Source: Arenibacter hampyeongensis (GTDB lineage: Bacteria; Bacteroidota; Bacteroidia; Flavobacteriales; Flavobacteriaceae). Taken from it: a DNA stretch of 64,000 bases. A program made the translations under genes and the position numbers. Under the pieces are notes generated by a model. That model had not been told where the DNA came from. It saw only the letters and a program-made list of their open reading frames with translations, and did not search any database. Numbering within the stretch: position 1 is the first letter of the stretch; every line of letters begins with the position of its first letter. Location of the stretch: positions 744,001 to 808,000 of the forward strand of contig NZ_PIOB01000001.1 in NCBI RefSeq assembly GCF_002909255.1, in the 5' to 3' direction. Shown one piece after another: positions 53,851 to 64,000 of this stretch.

Positions 53851-55089
53851 ATGGCTACAATCAATAGAAAGTTCTTTAAGAATTCCATAATGGTCATAAT
53901 GCTGTTGGGCCTTGCCACTTTTGTATATTATTGCAAGAATGTGAAAACGGAATCGGATTATTATAATCCCCAGACTTTGGCAACCCATGACAATGGGGAG
54001 CATTTTGTAGGTTCTAAAACTTGTATGGAGTGCCATGCCGATATTTACAATACCCATTTAGAGACAGCACATTTTAATAGTGGATCCATGGCGGATTCAT
54101 CCAATATTAAGGGTAGTTTCAAGGAAGGTTCCAATATATTGGACCTGAAGTCTGTAGAGTTTGTAATGAGGTCGGATGGGGAGTACTTTTATCAGCATAC
54201 CAGGATTAAAAATAGGAGTACAGAGATTCCACCCTCAAAATTTGATATTGTAATTGGATCAGGTGTCAGGGGACAGTCCTATCTCACTTGGGACAAGGAC
54301 GATTTATATCAATTACAGGCTTCTTATTATACCCCTACGGACAGCTGGGTGAACAGTCCGGGATATCCAACCTATTACGATGAGCCAAGGCCCATAAGGG
54401 ATGCCTGTCTAAAATGCCATATCACCTATGCCAAAACTGTGGAAACATCCCCTAATGGAAACCGTTTTGACAGGTCGCAGATGATTTATGGAATAGATTG
54501 TGAACGCTGCCATGGTCCGTCTGCCAAGCATGTCGTGTATCACAGGGAGAATCCTGAAGCAATAGAGTCTAAATTTACCTTAAAAATTGAAGACCTTTCG
54601 CGACAACAGCGTTTGGATTTATGTGCCCAATGCCATTCTGGGCCAAGAAACATAGTGTTGAAGGGGAATTCCTTTTCCTACGCCACGGGAGAAGATTTGA
54701 AACAATATACCAAAAATGTGGATAATGAAAGTTCTGAACGTAAATTGGATGTCCACGGAAACCAATATGGGCTGCTAACCAGAAGTGAATGTTTTAAGCA
54801 GACGGCAACAATGGACTGTAGTACCTGTCATGATCCCCATAGGAAGGAGAGGGGGAATACCGCTTATTTTAATGGTAAATGCATTGGCTGTCACAATGAT
54901 GGTGCAAAGATGTGTTCCAATAAAGCCCATGGCAGTGATATAATGACAAGTAATTGCATTACATGTCATATGCCCACCACCCCTTCCCAAGCAATGATGG
55001 TGCAATTAACCAAGGATAGTCTTGAAACCTCCTTTAATATAAGGACTCATTTGATCGGTATTTATGAACAGGAATTGTGGCGGGATTAA
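53851..55089 (+). CDS. Heptahaem cytochrome c family protein
   Basis: A 412-residue exported multihaem cytochrome. It has an N-terminal hydrophobic segment (residues 12-27, then YYC28), either a membrane anchor or a lipoprotein signal with a poor lipobox. Seven CxxCH haem c sites lie at residues 58-62 (CMECH), 186-190 (CLKCH), 217-221 (CERCH), 258-262 (CAQCH), 323-327 (CSTCH), 344-348 (CIGCH) and 369-373 (CITCH). Extra histidines (H75, H227, H302, H330, H360, H400) may serve as distal ligands. CERCHGP and CSTCHDPH resemble cytochrome c554/NrfB-like multihaem proteins. The catalytic type, if any, cannot be read. It lies 86 bases after the UnbV gene on the same strand, with a strong hairpin between, so a shared operon is probable but not certain. 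Confidence 0.92.
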   Translation: MATINRKFFKNSIMVIMLLGLATFVYYCKNVKTESDYYNPQTLATHDNGEHFVGSKTCMECHADIYNTHLETAHFNSGSMADSSNIKGSFKEGSNILDLKSVEFVMRSDGEYFYQHTRIKNRSTEIPPSKFDIVIGSGVRGQSYLTWDKDDLYQLQASYYTPTDSWVNSPGYPTYYDEPRPIRDACLKCHITYAKTVETSPNGNRFDRSQMIYGIDCERCHGPSAKHVVYHRENPEAIESKFTLKIEDLSRQQRLDLCAQCHSGPRNIVLKGNSFSYATGEDLKQYTKNVDNESSERKLDVHGNQYGLLTRSECFKQTATMDCSTCHDPHRKERGNTAYFNGKCIGCHNDGAKMCSNKAHGSDIMTSNCITCHMPTTPSQAMMVQLTKDSLETSFNIRTHLIGIYEQELWRD

Positions 55090-55137: not shown

Positions 55138-58100
55138 CTATTTCAGGATTACTTTCCGTAGCGAATTTCCATAGGGGGTTTCGAGCAGTACGGCATATAC
55201 CCCCGATGGAAGACCGGAGATATCAAAGGGAATGGAATAAGAGGCTTCTCCCCTGTCTTTTTTAGAGGCCATAAAGGCGTTGTTGGCAAAGTTGAATATT
55301 TTAATGCTGATATTTCCCCGTTCCGAAAGAGCTATATCGGCTGTAAATTTCCCATCTGTGGGATTGGGATAAATAATAAAATCTTGGATAAGCTTTCTCG
55401 GATCTGCCTGCCCATCGCCTTCAGTTAATACTTCATTCTCTATGACCAGTACTTTTTTGGTCTGATTTGCGAAACATTCACCAATCCGCGTCATGATTCC
55501 TATTTCGTATTCACCAGGTGTATTGAATACCATTTCGGCCTCATCCGAATCTTGCTTTAGAATAGTTGCACCTTCAGGCAATATCCATTCTTGTGTTTCC
55601 GGCAGTGGATAGCTAATATCAACAGCGATAAGTGACTCCCCAACAAATACTTGGCTAGAAACTGCAAATTCTGCGTTTATTTCATCATCAGAGACATCAA
55701 CAAAAACACTTCCTGTTGCTGAGCACCCATTTTGGTTGGAAACTATTACGGAATAATTGCCACTTTCATTAATAGTAACGCTTGGTTTCGAACTGGAAAA
55801 TCCATTATCGGAAGTCCAGTTGTAAGTAGCATTGGTATGGTCTACAGTTGCATTCAACACTAATTCCTGTCCTGCACAAAGGGTCCTATCCTGGCCCAGA
55901 TTGACTTCTAAAGGAATCGGTTCCTCAACTACATAAGTTCTGGTTAAAGCGCCATTTCCAAAACCATTGATAATTACCGAATAATTACCTGGAGCCAGAT
56001 TTGTAATATTGTTTGTTGAGGCTCCATTATTCCAACTATAGGTAAATGTTCCATTACCTTGATTTACAACTATTTCTATACTGCCATCATTTTCTCCTGA
56101 ACAGCTAGGTTGTGTGATTGTCTCCTGCACTATATCAGGTTGAGCCACTTCATAGATTTCGGTAGCCGTACATCCATTGGCATCGGTAATCAAAACTTCA
56201 TACGAATCGGTGGCTAAATTGGAGATAGTAGATTGATCTCCCATATTCTGGCCATCCGAGATTCTGGTCCATGCGATAGTATAGGGCTCGGAACCTCCAG
56301 AAATCTCCAAGGCAATGCTTCCGTCATTGGCTTGATATTCACTAACATCCATCAAGGTTGTATCGACAATCTGTAAGGGATCAGCAGGAGTTCCCACAAT
56401 ATAAGTGCTTTCCGCCAGACAACCATTGTCATCAAAAATTAGTACGGAATATTCCCCAGCTGCAATATTGGATAGATCTTCCGTAACCGCACCATTACTC
56501 CATTCATAGGTATATGGTAATGTTCCCCCTTGTACCGAAATAGCAATGCTTCCGGTTTCCGCTCCGTTGCAGAGAACATCAGTAATACTATTCTCCGTTA
56601 TTTCCAATAGATCTGGTTGGTCAATGATAACCGATGTCGCATCAACGTTAATGGTATTTGTATCGGTAACCCTTACAAAATAGGCTCCTGCCGTTAGATT
56701 TCCGATAATTTCAGTATCCTCTACAAGCTGTATATCGTTTCCATTTTCTGTTCTAAACCATTCAAAGGTATAAGGCGCTACACCGCCTTGCACGTTGGCA
56801 GTGATTTCGGCAAAGTCATCATCGTTACATTCCAAGAATACGGTTTGGTTTAGCGACACAATGAGTTGCCCTGGTTCAGCTATGGTAATAGGCTGCTGGG
56901 AGACCAAGATACAACCAGCGCCATTGTTGAGGGCATAGTTTTCATCGATAATGGTTACGAGATAATCGCCGCCAGGAAGGTTTTCCAATACATTACTGTT
57001 TATTGGCGTAAAGTTTGTAGGCCCTGTCCAACTATAGGATAAAGTTCCTGTTCCTCCAAATGCCGTTATAGTTATGGCACCATCCGCTGCATTTGCAGCA
57101 GAAAGTGGTTGTTGTAGGTCGATGACGAAACTTAACTCCTGGGGTTCATTGATCATTACTGGATTAGGAGATATGAAATCGCAATTATTACTATCCCTTA
57201 CATAGGCTGTAAAGTTACCTTGGGCCAAGCCATTAAAGATAGGGGAGTTCCGATAGGTAATGCCATCCAGGGAATAGGTATAGTCGCCTGTTCCACCAAG
57301 GGCCTCTATTTGAATACTGCCACTAACACCTTCAAAACAGCTTATATCCGTAGTGATTACATTGGTAATACTAAGTGCTTCTGTGGGTTGGTTGATTATA
57401 ATTGGGGCCGATGAGGTCGTTGTATTGATATCGGTAACGGTCAACATATAACCTCCGGCTACAATACCAGAAATATTTGGCCCATCGGTACCATTGCCTA
57501 TTAAAATCTGGCTTCCATCAGCAAAGGTCCATTCATAGGTAATGGTCCCCTCCCCGGTTACCGTTGTGGCAATGCTTCCGCTTGCTTCGCCAAAACAGCT
57601 TACATCAGTGGGAGTAATATTGTTAATTGACAATGGTCCAGGTTCTGGCAAGAAAAAGGTTTGGGAATGATAGCAACCGTCTATACCACCCAGATTCCCT
57701 GGAGAGGTGATTTCCACAGTGTAGTTACCAGTTACTAATACATCAATATCCTTAGTGGTTCTTGGGATGGTAATTCCAGGTCCGGTCCAACTGTAGGCAT
57801 AAGGTTCTGTTCCTCCTGACACCTCAAGGATAATGCTGCCATCTGAACCTCCGGTAGATGAAACGTCTGAAATGGTTTCAGTTACTGAAATTTGTAATGG
57901 TTCAATAATTTCTACTGTGGTAGTGAATTCACATAAGTTATAATCACGAATAGTAACTACATAAGTTCTTGGGGCTAAATCATTAAAAGTATCACTTACT
58001 TGAAATCCGAAGCCACCATCAATGGCATATTCATAAGGAGCAGTGCCTCCCAGAGCGGTAATCTGTATATTCCCGTCATTACCACCATAACAAGAAACTA

Positions 58101-60888
58101 CAGTAGATACTACTGTTGCATCCAAGGTCTCCAGAGGTTCTGTTATGGTAACGGTATCGGTAACTTCCGGATCCCCAGAGGCATCTGTTAGCCTAAGGAA
58201 ATAAATGCCCTCGGCCAAATTAGCAATAGTCGCGGCATTTGGTGATGTTATGGGCTGCCCATCCTGTCGTTCCCAAATGTAATTGAATGGCGCTACACCA
58301 GTCACCACTGCGGTTATACTGCCTGTTGCCTGGCCCCTACAAAGAACGGGCGTTGGGGTAAGACTTGTAATTCCTAATGGCCCCGGCTGGTCTATTACAA
58401 TTGGAGGGTTACTAAGAGGCGAGCAGTCATTGACATCGGTAATTTGGGCAATGTATTCCCCGGCTTCCAAATTAACAAGATTGGTACTCGTAGATCCGGT
58501 TGAAAGTGTAAAAGGCTGACCTTCCCTGGTCCAAGTAATTGTATATGGATCGGCGGGTTCGGAAAATGGTGTTCCTCCAACTATGGTAAGCGTTATACTT
58601 CCTTGGTTTCCACCATTTGTAGTTGCGTTTTGGGTAGTGGTTGAGACTGTAAGTTCATCCGGTTCCGATATCAATATGCCCAGGACTGGGTCTGACTCGC
58701 AATTATTCTGGTTTCTTATATAAATATCATAGAAGCCTCCGCGAGTTATTGGAATTGTGCCATTATTAAGTGGGGTCCAAGGGCCAAAAAAATCCAATTT
58801 GTATTCGTAGCTTGAGCCTCCGGAGGCAGTCACCGATATGCTTCCATCATGAGCCCCTAAACAGCTAATATTATTTGGGGTGGCAGAATTTATTATAACC
58901 TCTTCAGGGGTATTTAAGGTGATGGTGGTACTGTCGTAACCTGAGGGGTCATCAAATTCGGTAAAGCCAGTTGAAGCGACCTTTAGAATATATTCTCCAG
59001 GCTCGGATAGGTTGTTTAGAGAGATTGTTTGATTTCCTGTGGTTTGAATGGGTGACACTACCCCGTTAATTGTCCATTGGTAGTTATAATTAAGCACCCC
59101 TCCAGAAATCGTTATGGTTATACTTCCATCATTTCCATTTGGACATACTATTTGATTTAACTGCTGATCAGCTATCTGTGGGGGAGGGATTGTCGTAACT
59201 GCAATATTTTCAGAAGTGAGATTACAACCGTTACTGTCTGTTATAGTTATCCTGTAGGTGCCAATTCCTAATTCTTGAAATTCAACTGTTTTGTTTAGAC
59301 TGCTCTGGATTAAATTTGGGTTTGCAATAGTTTCAAATTCGAGGGTAGTTTCATTTTCCTTGACCAATCCAAAAGTATAATTGGGTGTTCCCCCGTTATA
59401 TAATATACTAATGACCCCATCATTCGAGTTGCTTGATGAAGTAATGCCAGGGTTGGGATCTTCAAAACTTAGACTTGGCGGTGCTGTAATTGTAATCTGT
59501 TCAGAGGGTAGACTTAAACAACCAGTTGGACTGCGCGCTAAAAAGGTATAATTGCCGGGTTCTAGATTAAAAAATGTGGGATTTGAATCCCAGCTATTAT
59601 CATCTCCTTGAATACCATATTCCAAGGATATATTTTCATTGGTAGGGAATCCTCCGCCCTGTCCAACTAACGTAACAGACCCTTTTTCTCCAGCACAACT
59701 GGGCTGTGTAATGTTCTGTGGAGGGATGGAAATTGAAATTTCACTTGGCCTAGAAATTCTAAAAGTATTGGGCGTTATCCCTCCGCTTTTAATTTCAACG
59801 GGATTTTTAGAATAGTCTACTTCTTGATAAACTATGAAATAATCGGCATAATTTAAAGTAGAGCCGTTAGAAGCGATACTGCTTCCACTCAAATCAGTTG
59901 CAGTTCCACTGTACCCATTTGCATTTGAAGTAAGCGTCAATAATGGATCAGATATAGTCTGCTTGGTGGTTCCAGGAAAAGTTGGGTCATTGGCCTTAAG
60001 TTCAGTTTCGTTTGGATTTCCTGGATGTGTACCTTGGTAAAGAAAATAACGCATTAGAAAACCTTCGGCTACATCATCTTCGAAAGTTAAAGTAACGCTG
60101 CCGTCATTGTCACCATGGCAGGTTTCGTTATAAGTTATTGTTAATTCGGGGATAAGGTTTGGGGAACAATCTATGATGTCATATGTAACTATGCCCCCCA
60201 CATAATCCGAAGGAATTTGAGATTGAAATTCTGCTTTTCTAATTTTTATGTAAATCTGTCCATCTGGATTTAGTCCTGGAATATTGGAAGGTGTAAAACT
60301 AAAGTTTGTGTCATGCTCACCATAGGGCAATAATTCTTTATAGAGGCCGATATTTGATAATGAATATTCTATTGCATATTTAATTTTACCTAAACTGCAG
60401 GAAGTTGTTTCTTCAAAAAAATCAATACTTTGAGGCTTACAAAATGGACTAGGAGAACTCTGGTTAGTTACTGACTTAAAGGCACCAAGCTTTACAAATG
60501 CAATTCCAGCTGTTAAATCAGTGCAATCATCTATGTATCTTTCTGTAAAAGCAAGATAAGGGCTGCATACATCTCCCAAATCAATATATTTTGTCGTCGC
60601 AAGGTTGCAAAAAGGATTATTGATTCCTGCCCTGCCATAACGTAATTCAATCCTGTCTAAATTATAATCTGATGAAAAATAGATTTGGCTATTATCGTAA
60701 AATGTTGAGCCATAATGAAAAAAGTAGGAATTATTTCCGTCGGCTAATTCATAAATTAAATTACCTGAAGTGTTAGTGCCATATGACATATTTACATTTT
60801 GATGAATATAGTACCAATTTTGACCCTCAACTTGAGTATAAATGAATAAAAACAAAATGATTAAAAAATATTTATTGGTTTTCCTCAT
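55138..60888 (-). CDS. Giant SprB-repeat adhesin-like protein with T9SS type A C-terminal domain
   Basis: A 1916-residue secreted protein. Residues 1-22 form a signal peptide (YTQVEG before QNW). Residues 24-245 form a unique N-terminal domain with several cysteines. Residues about 250-1664 hold 16 SprB-like Ig-type repeats (typical core: CxGxxDGSI, GGTxPYxYxW, LxxGxYxVxITD). Then come two Ig/PKD-like domains (about 1665-1820) and a type A C-terminal sorting domain at 1835-1916 (DFIIYPNPTDGKF at the start), which directs secretion by the type IX system. SprB itself is the mobile gliding adhesin of Flavobacterium. The repeats follow a cysteine code of period three, described under findings. 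It ends three genes in one direction; translation starts three bases after the FN3 gene. Confidence 0.92.
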   Translation of the reverse strand: MRKTNKYFLIILFLFIYTQVEGQNWYYIHQNVNMSYGTNTSGNLIYELADGNNSYFFHYGSTFYDNSQIYFSSDYNLDRIELRYGRAGINNPFCNLATTKYIDLGDVCSPYLAFTERYIDDCTDLTAGIAFVKLGAFKSVTNQSSPSPFCKPQSIDFFEETTSCSLGKIKYAIEYSLSNIGLYKELLPYGEHDTNFSFTPSNIPGLNPDGQIYIKIRKAEFQSQIPSDYVGGIVTYDIIDCSPNLIPELTITYNETCHGDNDGSVTLTFEDDVAEGFLMRYFLYQGTHPGNPNETELKANDPTFPGTTKQTISDPLLTLTSNANGYSGTATDLSGSSIASNGSTLNYADYFIVYQEVDYSKNPVEIKSGGITPNTFRISRPSEISISIPPQNITQPSCAGEKGSVTLVGQGGGFPTNENISLEYGIQGDDNSWDSNPTFFNLEPGNYTFLARSPTGCLSLPSEQITITAPPSLSFEDPNPGITSSSNSNDGVISILYNGGTPNYTFGLVKENETTLEFETIANPNLIQSSLNKTVEFQELGIGTYRITITDSNGCNLTSENIAVTTIPPPQIADQQLNQIVCPNGNDGSITITISGGVLNYNYQWTINGVVSPIQTTGNQTISLNNLSEPGEYILKVASTGFTEFDDPSGYDSTTITLNTPEEVIINSATPNNISCLGAHDGSISVTASGGSSYEYKLDFFGPWTPLNNGTIPITRGGFYDIYIRNQNNCESDPVLGILISEPDELTVSTTTQNATTNGGNQGSITLTIVGGTPFSEPADPYTITWTREGQPFTLSTGSTSTNLVNLEAGEYIAQITDVNDCSPLSNPPIVIDQPGPLGITSLTPTPVLCRGQATGSITAVVTGVAPFNYIWERQDGQPITSPNAATIANLAEGIYFLRLTDASGDPEVTDTVTITEPLETLDATVVSTVVSCYGGNDGNIQITALGGTAPYEYAIDGGFGFQVSDTFNDLAPRTYVVTIRDYNLCEFTTTVEIIEPLQISVTETISDVSSTGGSDGSIILEVSGGTEPYAYSWTGPGITIPRTTKDIDVLVTGNYTVEITSPGNLGGIDGCYHSQTFFLPEPGPLSINNITPTDVSCFGEASGSIATTVTGEGTITYEWTFADGSQILIGNGTDGPNISGIVAGGYMLTVTDINTTTSSAPIIINQPTEALSITNVITTDISCFEGVSGSIQIEALGGTGDYTYSLDGITYRNSPIFNGLAQGNFTAYVRDSNNCDFISPNPVMINEPQELSFVIDLQQPLSAANAADGAITITAFGGTGTLSYSWTGPTNFTPINSNVLENLPGGDYLVTIIDENYALNNGAGCILVSQQPITIAEPGQLIVSLNQTVFLECNDDDFAEITANVQGGVAPYTFEWFRTENGNDIQLVEDTEIIGNLTAGAYFVRVTDTNTINVDATSVIIDQPDLLEITENSITDVLCNGAETGSIAISVQGGTLPYTYEWSNGAVTEDLSNIAAGEYSVLIFDDNGCLAESTYIVGTPADPLQIVDTTLMDVSEYQANDGSIALEISGGSEPYTIAWTRISDGQNMGDQSTISNLATDSYEVLITDANGCTATEIYEVAQPDIVQETITQPSCSGENDGSIEIVVNQGNGTFTYSWNNGASTNNITNLAPGNYSVIINGFGNGALTRTYVVEEPIPLEVNLGQDRTLCAGQELVLNATVDHTNATYNWTSDNGFSSSKPSVTINESGNYSVIVSNQNGCSATGSVFVDVSDDEINAEFAVSSQVFVGESLIAVDISYPLPETQEWILPEGATILKQDSDEAEMVFNTPGEYEIGIMTRIGECFANQTKKVLVIENEVLTEGDGQADPRKLIQDFIIYPNPTDGKFTADIALSERGNISIKIFNFANNAFMASKKDRGEASYSIPFDISGLPSGVYAVLLETPYGNSLRKVILK
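55897..60141 (-). repeat. Higher-order array: 16 SprB-like domains in five three-domain units plus one
   Basis: Protein-level repeats within the giant gene. Three-domain units cover residues 250-575, 576-843, 844-1091, 1092-1347 and 1348-1590, followed by one further domain (1591-1664). The domain kinds alternate strictly A, B, C by cysteine content: A has a cysteine near its start only, B near start and end, C near its end only. Cysteines: 555, 582, 676, 730, 822, 850, 933, 986, 1072, 1098, 1184, 1236, 1326, 1354, 1440, 1490, 1573, 1596. Within the DNA the units have diverged, so no simple nucleotide repeat is seen. Confidence 0.85.
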
Positions 60889-60891
60889 AAC

Positions 60892-62949
60892 CTAATACTT
60901 TAAATTAATCTTTGATATTAAAGATGTGCGACCACCATTAAGGACCAATTGCAGTCCGTAATTGTAATTGGTGTTCACTTCAAGGTCAACATCATTAAAA
61001 CCCTTGCTTGTCCCTTCCAAAGTTTTATACAACTTTAAAGGGTGATTATCGGTGCCTCGATACAGTCGGTATTCCAAAACATGAAAATTCTTGACTTTCC
61101 ATGTTAGGTTAATAAATCGCAATTCGCGATTTACGGTTCCTGAGAACTTTACATCCTCATCTGTAACCGCCTTTCCGTTCCATGTAACCGAAACTGGTTT
61201 GGCAGGTGTACTTTCCAATCCAACCGAATCTATGGCCACTACGGTATAATAGAATACATTCGGATCTTGCAGTGTAACATCATAAAAAGTGGAATCTTGT
61301 AATGACTTGGATTCAAATAATTTCTCCCATTGGATATCATGTTCCCCTCCAGTTTTTCGATATACTATATGGGAGCTAATATCGGGACTGCTACTGGGAA
61401 CCCAATAAATTCTAATCCCGTCAGAAGTCACTACATAATTGTTCAGAATTGGGGTAGAGGGCGGAATAATATCCGGTTTGTCCATGATCAATACCTCCGA
61501 AAATTTTGAACGATTAAAGCGCTGGTCCTCTGCCAATATCTTATAGTATATTTTTTTATTTAAATTGGCTATTGATAATGTATCCGTATAGTTTTCGTGT
61601 TTAAAAGTAGTCTGTGTGACTTCACTAAACTCCGCCTGTGGATTATTTGACCTGTAGATTCGATATCCTCCCAAATCTTCTTCCAGATTTTTTGACCAAG
61701 ATAATTTAACGACTCCAGTAGTATCCATTGTTCCTATAAGGCCAATTGGGTTAGTGGGAGGTAGGGAATCAACAGGTTGGACCAAGGTGGAATAAGATTC
61801 GCTTTCCAACTTATTTTTTCCCATAGCAACAATGGTAAAATAATTTACCCTGTCCAAACCTTCATAGGTTATTTCCCTTGCCGTATTTGGAATATTATCT
61901 ACTACTGTTAGAAAAGGACCTTTGTTGTTGTTCGCCTTGCGCAGTTGAAACTTATCAATTAAGCTGTTATCTTCTTCCTTAAATTCCCACCGGAGAATTA
62001 CCTTATTATCAGTAGGCAGTTCTTTTTGATAAATTCGGGGAACAAAACCCAATGTTTCTTCCGCCTTACCCTCTACTATTTCAGAACTTGGTCCAGTTTC
62101 CCCAAAAGCAGTTTTACCTATAACGCGATAATAGAAATTCGTGTTATTGGGTATCGAATCCATATAGAACATTGATATTTCGGAGGCTTCCTTGGGTTGT
62201 TGGGCATTGAATATAGGGACCCCGTTTAAGGGCTCAAAAGAAATATTGTCTCGAGATCTTTCAATTTGGTAATTGGAATATACATGTTGTAGCAAATTGA
62301 AGTTCCATCTCAATGTAACTTTTTTATCAGTAAAGACACCAGCTAAACCTATAGGTTTCGGAAGGGCTTCGTGCATATCTGGGCTAGCATATACCGTTCC
62401 ATTGTTAGTGGGAATATTACTTTGTTGTGGAAACGCTACCGATACAGAATAAACATATTTTTCGCCAGCAATAACCGAAGGGTCCTCTATGGCCCAGCCC
62501 GCCAATTTGGAAGCCTCATAGTTTTGTTCTGCAGCTACCAAGGCAATAGTAAAACGCTGTTCCAATTCATCGTTTATAGCATAGACAGCACCCATCTGAT
62601 TTCCAGGAGGACTAACTTCAAAGGTGTCACCATATAAAGCCTGGGCCAATATAGCTACATTCTGATCTTGTAAGGCCAGTGCTTCCCATTCTTCCAAAGG
62701 TTTTGGTCTTAGTGGTTGTGTAACTAATTGTTTCCTTTCTATGGGTACCACAGCCTCGCCGTTCCTTGAAATGGTTGCTCTTTCTATCCAAAAACCTAAT
62801 TCATTGGCATTCTTCCATGCCAAGGGCTGGTCCACTGCCCATCGCAATATTACCTTGTTGGGCAAGGAGCGAGCTATAACCTTGACCGAAGCGGTATCTT
62901 GAGCCCAGAGGCTTGAGGTTAATAAGAGTAATATAACGAGTCCTTTCAC
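60892..62949 (-). CDS. Secreted protein with multiple fibronectin type III domains
   Basis: A 685-residue exported protein. Residues 1-17 form a signal peptide (TSSLWA before QDT). An FN3-like N-terminal module around residues 20-120 (NKVILRWAVDQPLAWKN) is followed by further FN3 modules beginning near 195, 300, 395, 490 and 595. Each shows the pattern of P near the start, a VxLRW/IRIYW strand, and a Y-x-I/L-x-R strand (SNYQIERSRDN, GGYRIYRSNNP, SHIVYRKTGG, LEYRLYRGTDN). No catalytic motif and no C-terminal T9SS domain are seen, so it may stay in the periplasm or at the outer membrane. It lies three bases before the SprB-like gene, thus is almost surely co-translated with it and may help present it. 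Confidence 0.88.
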   Translation of the reverse strand: MKGLVILLLLTSSLWAQDTASVKVIARSLPNKVILRWAVDQPLAWKNANELGFWIERATISRNGEAVVPIERKQLVTQPLRPKPLEEWEALALQDQNVAILAQALYGDTFEVSPPGNQMGAVYAINDELEQRFTIALVAAEQNYEASKLAGWAIEDPSVIAGEKYVYSVSVAFPQQSNIPTNNGTVYASPDMHEALPKPIGLAGVFTDKKVTLRWNFNLLQHVYSNYQIERSRDNISFEPLNGVPIFNAQQPKEASEISMFYMDSIPNNTNFYYRVIGKTAFGETGPSSEIVEGKAEETLGFVPRIYQKELPTDNKVILRWEFKEEDNSLIDKFQLRKANNNKGPFLTVVDNIPNTAREITYEGLDRVNYFTIVAMGKNKLESESYSTLVQPVDSLPPTNPIGLIGTMDTTGVVKLSWSKNLEEDLGGYRIYRSNNPQAEFSEVTQTTFKHENYTDTLSIANLNKKIYYKILAEDQRFNRSKFSEVLIMDKPDIIPPSTPILNNYVVTSDGIRIYWVPSSSPDISSHIVYRKTGGEHDIQWEKLFESKSLQDSTFYDVTLQDPNVFYYTVVAIDSVGLESTPAKPVSVTWNGKAVTDEDVKFSGTVNRELRFINLTWKVKNFHVLEYRLYRGTDNHPLKLYKTLEGTSKGFNDVDLEVNTNYNYGLQLVLNGGRTSLISKINLKY

Positions 62950-62981: not shown

Positions 62982-64000
62982 CTAGTCGTTCACATATTTT
63001 ATTTCATATCCTTTTTGATAAATATCACCTGGTGTTCGGTAAATCAGCTGTGCCTTAAAATTACCTAGGGGCAAGGGAGGAAAGGGGCTTTCAATTAAAT
63101 ATTTGTACCTTTCATACTGAGAAATATTGCCATCACTTCCATAATATCTATTTAGGATTTTATCTCTTAAATAGACCATATCCACTTTATACTGATACGG
63201 TAAATTATATACAAAGGGAATTCTGTTTTTTACCCATGATGAATTAGGGTTGTTCTCTAGATTAGCCAAATATTCATTGCCTATATAAAAGGAACGGACA
63301 GGGGGTAATCCAAGTAGAGCTTCGTCCCGATTCACACTAATGTCACCATCAAGAGGGTAATTTTCATAAATAAGAGGGTATATTTTCTTTTTATAATAGG
63401 AATCGTCCAATATTGCTTGGGGGTATACCAAGGGTTTCGAATTGGTATATTTTCCTCCCAAGACTTCTAATTTTTCCAAATATTCATAGTCGGCCACCTT
63501 AACGGATAAGGAATGAACATCTGCAAAGATGTAGTTAGTAAGGTTATTGGTAACCGTTAATTCCTTCACTTTATCCTTAAAGCTAGGATACTTGCTAGTT
63601 TTGAAGCCATAATTCAAAATGGATTTGGGTGCTCCGTTGGAAATGGTAATATTGGCAGCTTTTTTGTTGGAAACTACGGCACTACCGGAGACGTTTCTCG
63701 TATCTTGGTTTCCGGTGGAAGGGTCAAACCAATTTGTATCCCCACTTTCTTGATCGGCAAGGGTTTCTGTATTTTCTATAATTATTTCGGTCTTAATATC
63801 CGACCCTGGTGGGAAAGTCAGCAAATTTATATTGTAATTGGAATTTAGGGACATGCCTTCTGGCACTTCATAAAATACCATTGCTTTTGATTTGTCGTAA
63901 GACAAATTTGTTCGGATGCCCTTATTATTAACAGTAGAAACAAACTCTGCCCTTGTTTTAAATCCGCTGTCGAAGAGATAATTCTGGGGAGTTTTCATTT
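62982..64000 (-). CDS. Unrecognised envelope protein, 5' end outside window
   Basis: At least 338 residues. The ATG at 63998 is the first in the window, but the sequence after it (MKTPQNYLFDSGFKTRAEFV) is no signal peptide, so the gene probably starts beyond the right edge. The composition is of a secreted beta-rich protein with many N, Y, T and S residues (NYNINLLTFPPGSDIKTEII, NISQYERYKYLIESPFPPLP). Residues about 95-120 hold small-residue segments (SGSAVVSNKKAANITIS). I know no family. It ends 32 bases before the FN3 gene, in one operon with FN3 and the SprB-like protein, so it likely belongs to the same surface system. Confidence 0.7.
   Translation of the reverse strand, partial: MKTPQNYLFDSGFKTRAEFVSTVNNKGIRTNLSYDKSKAMVFYEVPEGMSLNSNYNINLLTFPPGSDIKTEIIIENTETLADQESGDTNWFDPSTGNQDTRNVSGSAVVSNKKAANITISNGAPKSILNYGFKTSKYPSFKDKVKELTVTNNLTNYIFADVHSLSVKVADYEYLEKLEVLGGKYTNSKPLVYPQAILDDSYYKKKIYPLIYENYPLDGDISVNRDEALLGLPPVRSFYIGNEYLANLENNPNSSWVKNRIPFVYNLPYQYKVDMVYLRDKILNRYYGSDGNISQYERYKYLIESPFPPLPLGNFKAQLIYRTPGDIYQKGYEIKYVND

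What the first reader, a model, noticed from the sequence alone, without database searches (positions are those of the whole stretch)
55138..60888. Period-three cysteine code in a giant SprB-like protein
Seen directly: the 16 SprB-like domains alternate strictly A-B-C by the place of their cysteines. From C555 on, the cysteine spacings are 27, 94, 54, 92, then 28, 83, 53, 86, then 26, 86, 52, 90, then 28, 86, 50, 83, then 23, 75, 51, 83, the last cycle running into the Ig domains. Domains 3, 6, 9, 12 and 15 all lack the start cysteine; domains 1, 4, 7, 10, 13 and 16 all lack the end cysteine. Aromatic residues follow the code: A and C domains usually have YxW cores (YIWERQ, YSWTGP), B domains tend to have EYAIDG or YSLDG. 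Inference: the true building block is a trimer of domains of about 250 residues, with one disulfide inside B (about 52 apart) and one bridging C to the next A (about 26 apart). This would make a stiffened fibre and suggests growth by whole-trimer duplication. I do not know a description of this organisation for SprB proteins.
Basis: partly seen in the sequence, partly recalled or inferred. Interest (0 to 1): 0.75.

Follow-up and report, generated by a model that had tools for sequence, protein, structure and literature searches.

The report
Disulfide-stapled three-domain rods in adhesin
A giant surface protein of a marine bacterium is a chain of immunoglobulin-like domains whose cysteines appear to staple neighbouring domains together, with every third staple left out, so that its stalk is probably a row of stiff three-domain rods joined by looser joints.

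Summary
The cysteine code is real: spacings and A-B-C order are exactly as written and recur in 14 distinct orthologs, whose sizes differ by whole trimers. Immunoglobulin topology agrees: the start cysteine lies in the AB loop (C-terminal pole), the end cysteine in the FG loop (N-terminal pole). A opens, B continues and C closes a stapled block. The 5731-aa SprB-type protein of the same genome is stapled nearly throughout. The closest solved relative is the Aureispira grappling hook. No Cys-Cys distance could be measured. New variant of a known kind.

The parts
55138..60888 (-). SprB-like giant T9SS cargo protein, 1916 aa
60160..60888 (-). leader and N-terminal tip region (residues 1-243), very variable between orthologs; 6 Cys (94, 108, 122, 150, 164, 241)
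59185..60159 (-). Block 1: D1(A, by eye) D2(B) D3(C), residues 244-568; predicted staples C257-C457, C398-C555
   Evidence: pairing inferred
58381..59184 (-). Block 2: D4(A) D5(B) D6(C), residues 569-836; predicted staples C582-C730, C676-C822
   Evidence: pairing inferred
57637..58380 (-). Block 3: D7(A) D8(B) D9(C), residues 837-1084; predicted staples C850-C986, C933-C1072; a middle block of the kind that varies in number
   Evidence: pairing inferred
56869..57636 (-). Block 4: D10(A) D11(B) D12(C), residues 1085-1340; predicted staples C1098-C1236, C1184-C1326; a middle block of the kind that varies in number
   Evidence: pairing inferred
56143..56868 (-). Block 5: D13(A) D14(B) D15(C), residues 1341-1582; predicted staples C1354-C1490, C1440-C1573
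   Evidence: pairing inferred
55414..56142 (-). Block 6: D16(A), PKD/Ig-like (B), terminal Ig-like (C, assigned by eye), residues 1583-1825; predicted staples C1596-C1722, C1671-C1805
   Evidence: pairing inferred
55141..55374 (-). T9SS type A sorting domain (Por_Secre_tail / TIGR04183), residues 1839-1916
60892..62949 (-). fn3-type 685-aa protein, conserved neighbour
62982..64000 (-). 3' part of a conserved ~1675-aa protein (continues beyond the window), conserved neighbour

Best explanation
The protein is a T9SS-exported stalk of 18 Ig-type domains grouped in six blocks of three. The start cysteine of a domain (AB loop, C-terminal pole) bonds to the end cysteine of the following domain (FG loop, N-terminal pole), about 120-200 residues further on in this protein (usually 125-160 in SprB arrays). 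A domains open a block (start Cys only), B domains continue it (both), C domains close it (end Cys only). Every block thus has two inter-domain staples and each C-A junction has none. The stalk would be six covalently stiffened three-domain rods in series with freer joints, carrying a variable N-terminal tip and held at the C-terminal end through the T9SS sorting domain. Shown: the code, its conservation, the co-occurrence rule, the whole-trimer length changes. Inferred: that the cysteines are bonded, the geometry, the hinges and the tip function.
For: Co-occurrence start(n)/end(n+1): 834/3/10/35 (odds ratio 973) in 66 proteins after dropping 14 orthologs and 7 SprB loci of close relatives; hold-out of 51 other proteins 741/1/9/4, or 713/0/36/6 with the tighter tolerance; outside the family 1058 of 1079 agree, at most 1007 in 2000 shuffles. 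Orthologs 118/1/0/62. Many breaks of the tight count have a Cys displaced by a few residues. The A B* C grammar also appears with other block lengths: L182 reads ABC, AC, ABBBC, then after gaps AC, AC, AC. C is commoner as last domain (33 of 99 arrays) and A as first (15 of 99) than inside arrays (60 C and 47 A of 1606). All 24 Cys from C257 to C1805 pair with none left over (read off). AF2 models place the start position between strands A and B and the end position between F and G. The ABC model fits the 7 GhpA entries among the 50 rows shown with rmsd 5.6-7.8 and TMq 0.46-0.58; the CABC model, which includes the C-A joint, fits the 8 among its 50 rows with rmsd 14.6-16.3 and TMq 0.35-0.44; pTM 0.70 against 0.57.
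Against: No coordinates were available, so no Cys-Cys distance was measured. pTM, TM and rmsd depend on construct length, so those comparisons are weak. Outside the family there are only 16 co-loss events in 12 proteins, 4 of them in the hold-out set; two of the 16 involve domains without either Cys (L099, L117). 10 + 9 pairs have an end Cys with no start Cys before it and 3 + 1 the reverse. In the first survey without the CABCAB proteins the other two pairings also show positive association (odds ratios 6.8 and 17, against 250), and 26-apart has odds ratio 9.9 in the hold-out. Most first and last detected domains are type B (78 and 63 of 99), which the rule explains only if an end domain or partner was missed or the stretch was cut. 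D1 and the terminal Ig domain were typed by eye. One ortholog (L025) carries an unpartnered extra start Cys.
Confidence: 0.8

Rival explanations
1. One reading: one disulfide inside each B domain (about 52 apart) and one bridging each C to the next A (about 26 apart).
For: Spacings are regular and the parity of the CA and B units allows it.
Against: Presence/absence within a domain is no more concordant than shuffles (1085 of 1204, mean 1097) and 26-apart hardly (1000 of 1079 against 989); Ig topology puts those cysteines at opposite poles or two domains apart; it leaves C257 and C1805 without an array partner.
Confidence: 0.05
2. The staples exist, but the period of three is only a relic of how the gene grew (an ABC unit with one lost staple was duplicated) and the missing staple has no mechanical role.
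For: Middle trimers T3 and T4 group together (support 89) and vary in number; a nearly fully stapled array occurs in the same genome (L085); linker length is the same at stapled and unstapled joints (median 27 in orthologs).
Against: The pattern is kept in 14 orthologs although the compared stalk part is only 52-71% identical in the ten measured, and in relatives of other genera with related gene neighbours (L131, L104, L082); unstapled linkers in orthologs carry Pro-Gly in 30 of 62 against 3 of 118 stapled, though not in other proteins (2 of 35 against 11 of 834).
Confidence: 0.3
3. The cysteines cross-link different chains (a bundle, as recalled for the heptameric grappling hook) rather than neighbours in one chain.
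For: GhpA, the closest solved relative, is recalled to be a multi-chain assembly (the calls show only entry titles: 38, 46).
Against: The rule couples a domain with the next one in sequence and leaves no array Cys over; an inter-chain bond would need no such coupling unless in fixed register.
Confidence: 0.06

Closest known systems
SprB repeat proteins (Pfam PF13573), e.g. F. johnsoniae SprB
   Same: Same repeat family: 14 stretches, E 6.6e-99. Domains of the first survey carry the same two cysteines: start column Cys in 89% of 1201, end column Cys in 90% of 1350 hits.
   Different: Most surveyed arrays are nearly all type B (stapled throughout); here every third staple is missing. Gliding SprB is a type B substrate anchored by SprF (PMC12635249, passages seen); this protein has a type A sorting domain.
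Grappling hook protein A (GhpA) of Aureispira sp. CCB-QB1 (PDB 9flp, 9flw, 9g8b and others)
   Same: Best profile match in the PDB (E 3.1e-73) and top fold matches; at the four junctions read in the printed alignment an end Cys is followed by a start Cys.
   Different: 5898 aa; no period of three in the short part read. Its paper could not be read, so whether it already describes inter-domain disulfides is unknown.
RTX adhesins with Ca2+ in the linkers between beta-sandwich repeats (PMC7493085, seen in a search listing only)
   Same: Stiffening of a long tandem stalk at domain junctions.
   Different: Calcium, not disulfides.

Membership tests
SprB repeat (PF13573) | Tandem repeats over the curated score | tested here: met
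   323.7 bits, cut-off 28
T9SS type A cargo | C-terminal type A sorting domain | tested here: met
   PF18962 46.7 bits (cut-off 27), TIGR04183 41.3 bits (cut-off 23)
T9SS type A cargo | Exported and attached through PorV / sortase | not testable with these tools
   needs experiment
Gliding adhesin SprB (ortholog) | Type B C-terminal domain | tested here: not met
   C-terminus matches type A models over their cut-offs
Gliding adhesin SprB (ortholog) | SprF partner gene | not tested
   no search for sprF was made
GhpA grappling hook | Heptameric hook assembly (recalled) | not testable with these tools
   only array similarity shown
Disulfide-stapled SprB array (rule proposed here) | start Cys of n present if and only if end Cys of n+1 present | tested here: met
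   14 orthologs: 180 of 181 adjacent pairs
Disulfide-stapled SprB array (rule proposed here) | the two sulfurs actually bonded | not testable with these tools
   no coordinates, no wet data

The most novel reading that the evidence does not exclude
SprB-type arrays across Bacteroidota obey a punctuation grammar A B* C, in which cysteines write the places of inter-domain staples and omission of one staple writes a hinge; rod length between hinges is thus genetically set (two domains in some proteins, three here, dozens in very long SprB arrays).
Probability: 0.5. Interest if true: 0.75.

Novelty: new variant of a known kind. Interest (0 to 1): 0.6.

Why it matters
SprB repeats make up the gliding adhesins and other giant surface proteins of Bacteroidota (163 of 198 genomes drawn from the window's class hold a match at E 1e-9 or better). 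A sequence-readable rule for inter-domain disulfides would predict stiffness and hinge positions for many such proteins, can be checked at once on the deposited GhpA structures, and gives a clear mutational test of stalk stiffness in adhesion and gliding. No account of it was met in the searches made here, whose limits are told below.

Tried and rejected
Within-domain and 26-apart pairing: tested and rejected on co-occurrence. The first alignment for AF2 (A1, A-B-C-A-B units) was dropped because overlapping copies were aligned out of register; replaced by C-A-B-C (A2) and A-B-C (A3). Direct Cys-Cys distances: model files are not given to the Python box. Recombination cassettes for tip switching: the short SprB-like ORFs beside the big gene in L138 and L139 show no DNA-level repeat on the same strand (blastn, E 1e-5), so the idea was dropped. 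Type clustering inside the window protein alone: not significant. In the domain tree the A and B members of blocks 3 and 4 are supported sisters (D7/D10 99/86, D8/D11 100/80) but the C members (D9/D12) are not joined, so a whole-trimer duplication is shown only in part at that level.

Literature: searches were read as listings; passages were seen of PMC12635249 (12 of 56 places; SprF-GldK disulfides), PMC9870892 and PMC12618676; no whole paper was read. None of this described disulfides of SprB repeats. The 2024 Science paper on ixotrophy/GhpA is recalled only; it is not held.

Full report
What is there. The open frame 55138-60888 (-) encodes 1916 residues: a leader and N-terminal region, 16 SprB-like domains, two Ig/PKD-like domains and a T9SS type A sorting domain. 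The first SprB-like domain and the last Ig-like domain were recognised by eye; the domain profile did not report them. A profile built from the first survey shows that these are the two usual cysteines of SprB-type domains: start column Cys in 89% of 1201 and end column Cys in 90% of 1350 domain hits, orthologs included. So the code consists of regular omissions from a canonical two-cysteine domain: A lacks the end Cys, C lacks the start Cys, B is canonical.

Conservation. Fourteen distinct orthologs were collected: the window, six named Arenibacter loci and one Kriegella locus, and six from unnamed relatives. All keep the order; the only irregularity is one extra start Cys in L025. The array comes in three sizes: six A-B-C blocks in eight (open frames of 1879-1955 residues), five in five (1666-1726), four in one (Kriegella, 1416), that is, it changes by whole trimers. 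In a tree of 37 trimers from 11 of the 14, the second trimer and the last full trimer each form one supported group over all eleven, while the middle trimers T3 and T4 fall in one group (support 89) and vary in number (quick method, no bootstrap; the program warns of long branches). At the level of single domains, D7/D10 and D8/D11 are supported sisters but D9/D12 are not joined. The same CAB order recurs in L131, L104 and L082; beside these genes (seen in L138, L139 and L140) lie relatives of the same two neighbours (fn3 protein 37-38%, large protein 33-34%). It recurs partly in L107, L083, L093 and L134.

Which cysteines pair. If two cysteines bond, losing one should go with losing the other. 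Three pairings were compared in 66 proteins, after 14 orthologs and seven SprB loci of close relatives were dropped: within a domain 874/52/71/9, end(n) with start(n+1) 782/51/42/7, start(n) with end(n+1) 834/3/10/35 (both, first only, second only, neither). The last is a near-perfect rule (odds ratio 973). The tight tolerance gives 809/3/34/36; many of the 34 have a cysteine displaced by a few residues. A hold-out of 40 hand-picked stretches from genomes not used before, 51 proteins, gave 741/1/9/4 (wide) or 713/0/36/6 (tight). Shuffles of each cysteine label within arrays, outside the family: start(n)-end(n+1) agree in 1058 of 1079 pairs, shuffles 989 plus or minus 4.5, maximum 1007; 26-apart 1000 against 989 (37 of 2000 as high); within-domain 1085 of 1204 against 1097 (2000 of 2000 as high). 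Against the reading: co-losses outside the family are few (16 in 12 proteins), two of them with domains lacking both Cys (L099, L117); in the first survey without the CABCAB proteins the other two pairings also reach odds ratios of 6.8 and 17, against 250 for the staple; and 26-apart reaches 9.9 in the hold-out.

Grammar. The rule says that A opens, B continues and C closes a block. Transitions that obey it: 180 of 181 in orthologs, 858 of 870 in the first survey, 740 of 749 in the hold-out; setting B>B aside, 179 of 180, 126 of 138 and 43 of 52. L182 is a natural test: its array reads ABC, AC, ABBBC, then after gaps AC, AC, AC. L097 (18 domains, 1907-residue frame) begins with A, ends with C and is B between. 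Over 99 arrays of five or more domains, however, the first detected domain is A in 15, B in 78 and C in 6, the last C in 33, B in 63 and without either Cys in 3; some of these arrays are cut by the ends of the fetched stretch. Array ends thus support the rule only in part.

Geometry. AlphaFold2 models of C9-A10-B11-C12 (pLDDT 86.9, pTM 0.57) and A10-B11-C12 (pLDDT 89.8, pTM 0.70) show an Ig-like strand order, with the start position between strands A and B and the end position between F and G. In Ig domains the AB loop lies at the C-terminal pole and the FG loop at the N-terminal pole (established knowledge, not measured here). The ABC model matches the 7 GhpA entries among its 50 rows with rmsd 5.6-7.8 and TMq 0.46-0.58; the CABC model, which includes the C-A joint, matches the 8 among its 50 rows with rmsd 14.6-16.3 and TMq 0.35-0.44. 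That is in keeping with a different C-A joint but depends on length.

Bookkeeping. From C257 to C1805 the window protein has 24 cysteines; the staple rule pairs all of them in 12 bonds (257-457, 398-555, 582-730, 676-822, 850-986, 933-1072, 1098-1236, 1184-1326, 1354-1490, 1440-1573, 1596-1722, 1671-1805), the last two using the Ig/PKD domains. Six cysteines remain in the N-terminal region; read off, the number before the first array Cys is even (2, 4 or 6) in all 14 orthologs if cysteines in the first 35 positions of the open frame (leader or upstream) are set aside, a threshold chosen after the fact.

Function. Inference: a T9SS-exported surface stalk. Against the window's residues 1-245, two of ten compared orthologs (Kriegella L007 and L025) align over the whole length at 27-28%, three over short stretches (E 0.002 or better), five show nothing significant, while residues of about 1336-1859 (D13 to the start of the sorting domain) are 52-71% identical in all ten, as expected of a variable tip on a conserved rod. 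Unstapled linkers in orthologs often hold Pro-Gly (30 of 62 against 3 of 118), not so in other proteins (2 of 35 against 11 of 834). The rod would be six stiff three-domain links with freer joints.

Relation to known systems. SprB repeats (PF13573) and T9SS type A sorting domain: member by test. It is not the gliding adhesin SprB itself by its C-terminal domain; the 5731-aa protein of the same genome with 55 detected domains (L085, all B until a final C) is a likelier SprB (inference; its own C-terminus was not tested). The nearest solved structure is GhpA. No text describing disulfides of SprB repeats was met in the listings and passages seen, but the GhpA paper could not be read and may already describe such bonds; this lowers the novelty claimed.

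Noticed in passing
60892-62949 and 62982-64000 (-); L137: Two genes upstream of the SprB-like gene (fn3 protein of 685 aa, and a ~1675-aa protein without a confident Pfam match) have relatives beside the ortholog in the Arenibacter, Kriegella and other-genus loci compared (L001, L002, L004, L006, L007, L141-L143) and at 33-38% in L138-L140; L145 shows the fn3 relative only, at 25%.
   Followed up: partly
60160-60888 (-): The N-terminal tip region is very variable between orthologs (27-28% at best over its length, five of ten without a significant match) while the compared stalk part is 52-71% identical.
   Followed up: partly
L138:11945-15742 and L139:3679-6763: Three and two short ORFs (398-575 aa: a variable N-terminal part plus a SprB-like domain, ending soon after the end Cys) lie just before the large array gene; no same-strand DNA repeats with it.
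   Followed up: partly
G006:C1:431085-431324 (unnamed same-genus genome): A piece 71% identical to residues 1836-1915, with one stop inside, looks like a remnant of a lost ortholog.
   Followed up: no
L187 (LR756502.1, 642-kb uncultured phage record): A 1675-aa frame with 17 SprB-profile hits, start and end cysteines in most of the stronger ones; a huge phage with a host-like adhesin array or a mis-assigned contig.
   Followed up: partly
53851-55089 (+): 412-aa protein with several CxxCH motifs, probably a multihaem cytochrome c (read from the sequence).
   Followed up: no
L182: Array of blocks of different length in one protein (ABC, AC, ABBBC, then after gaps AC, AC, AC).
   Followed up: partly
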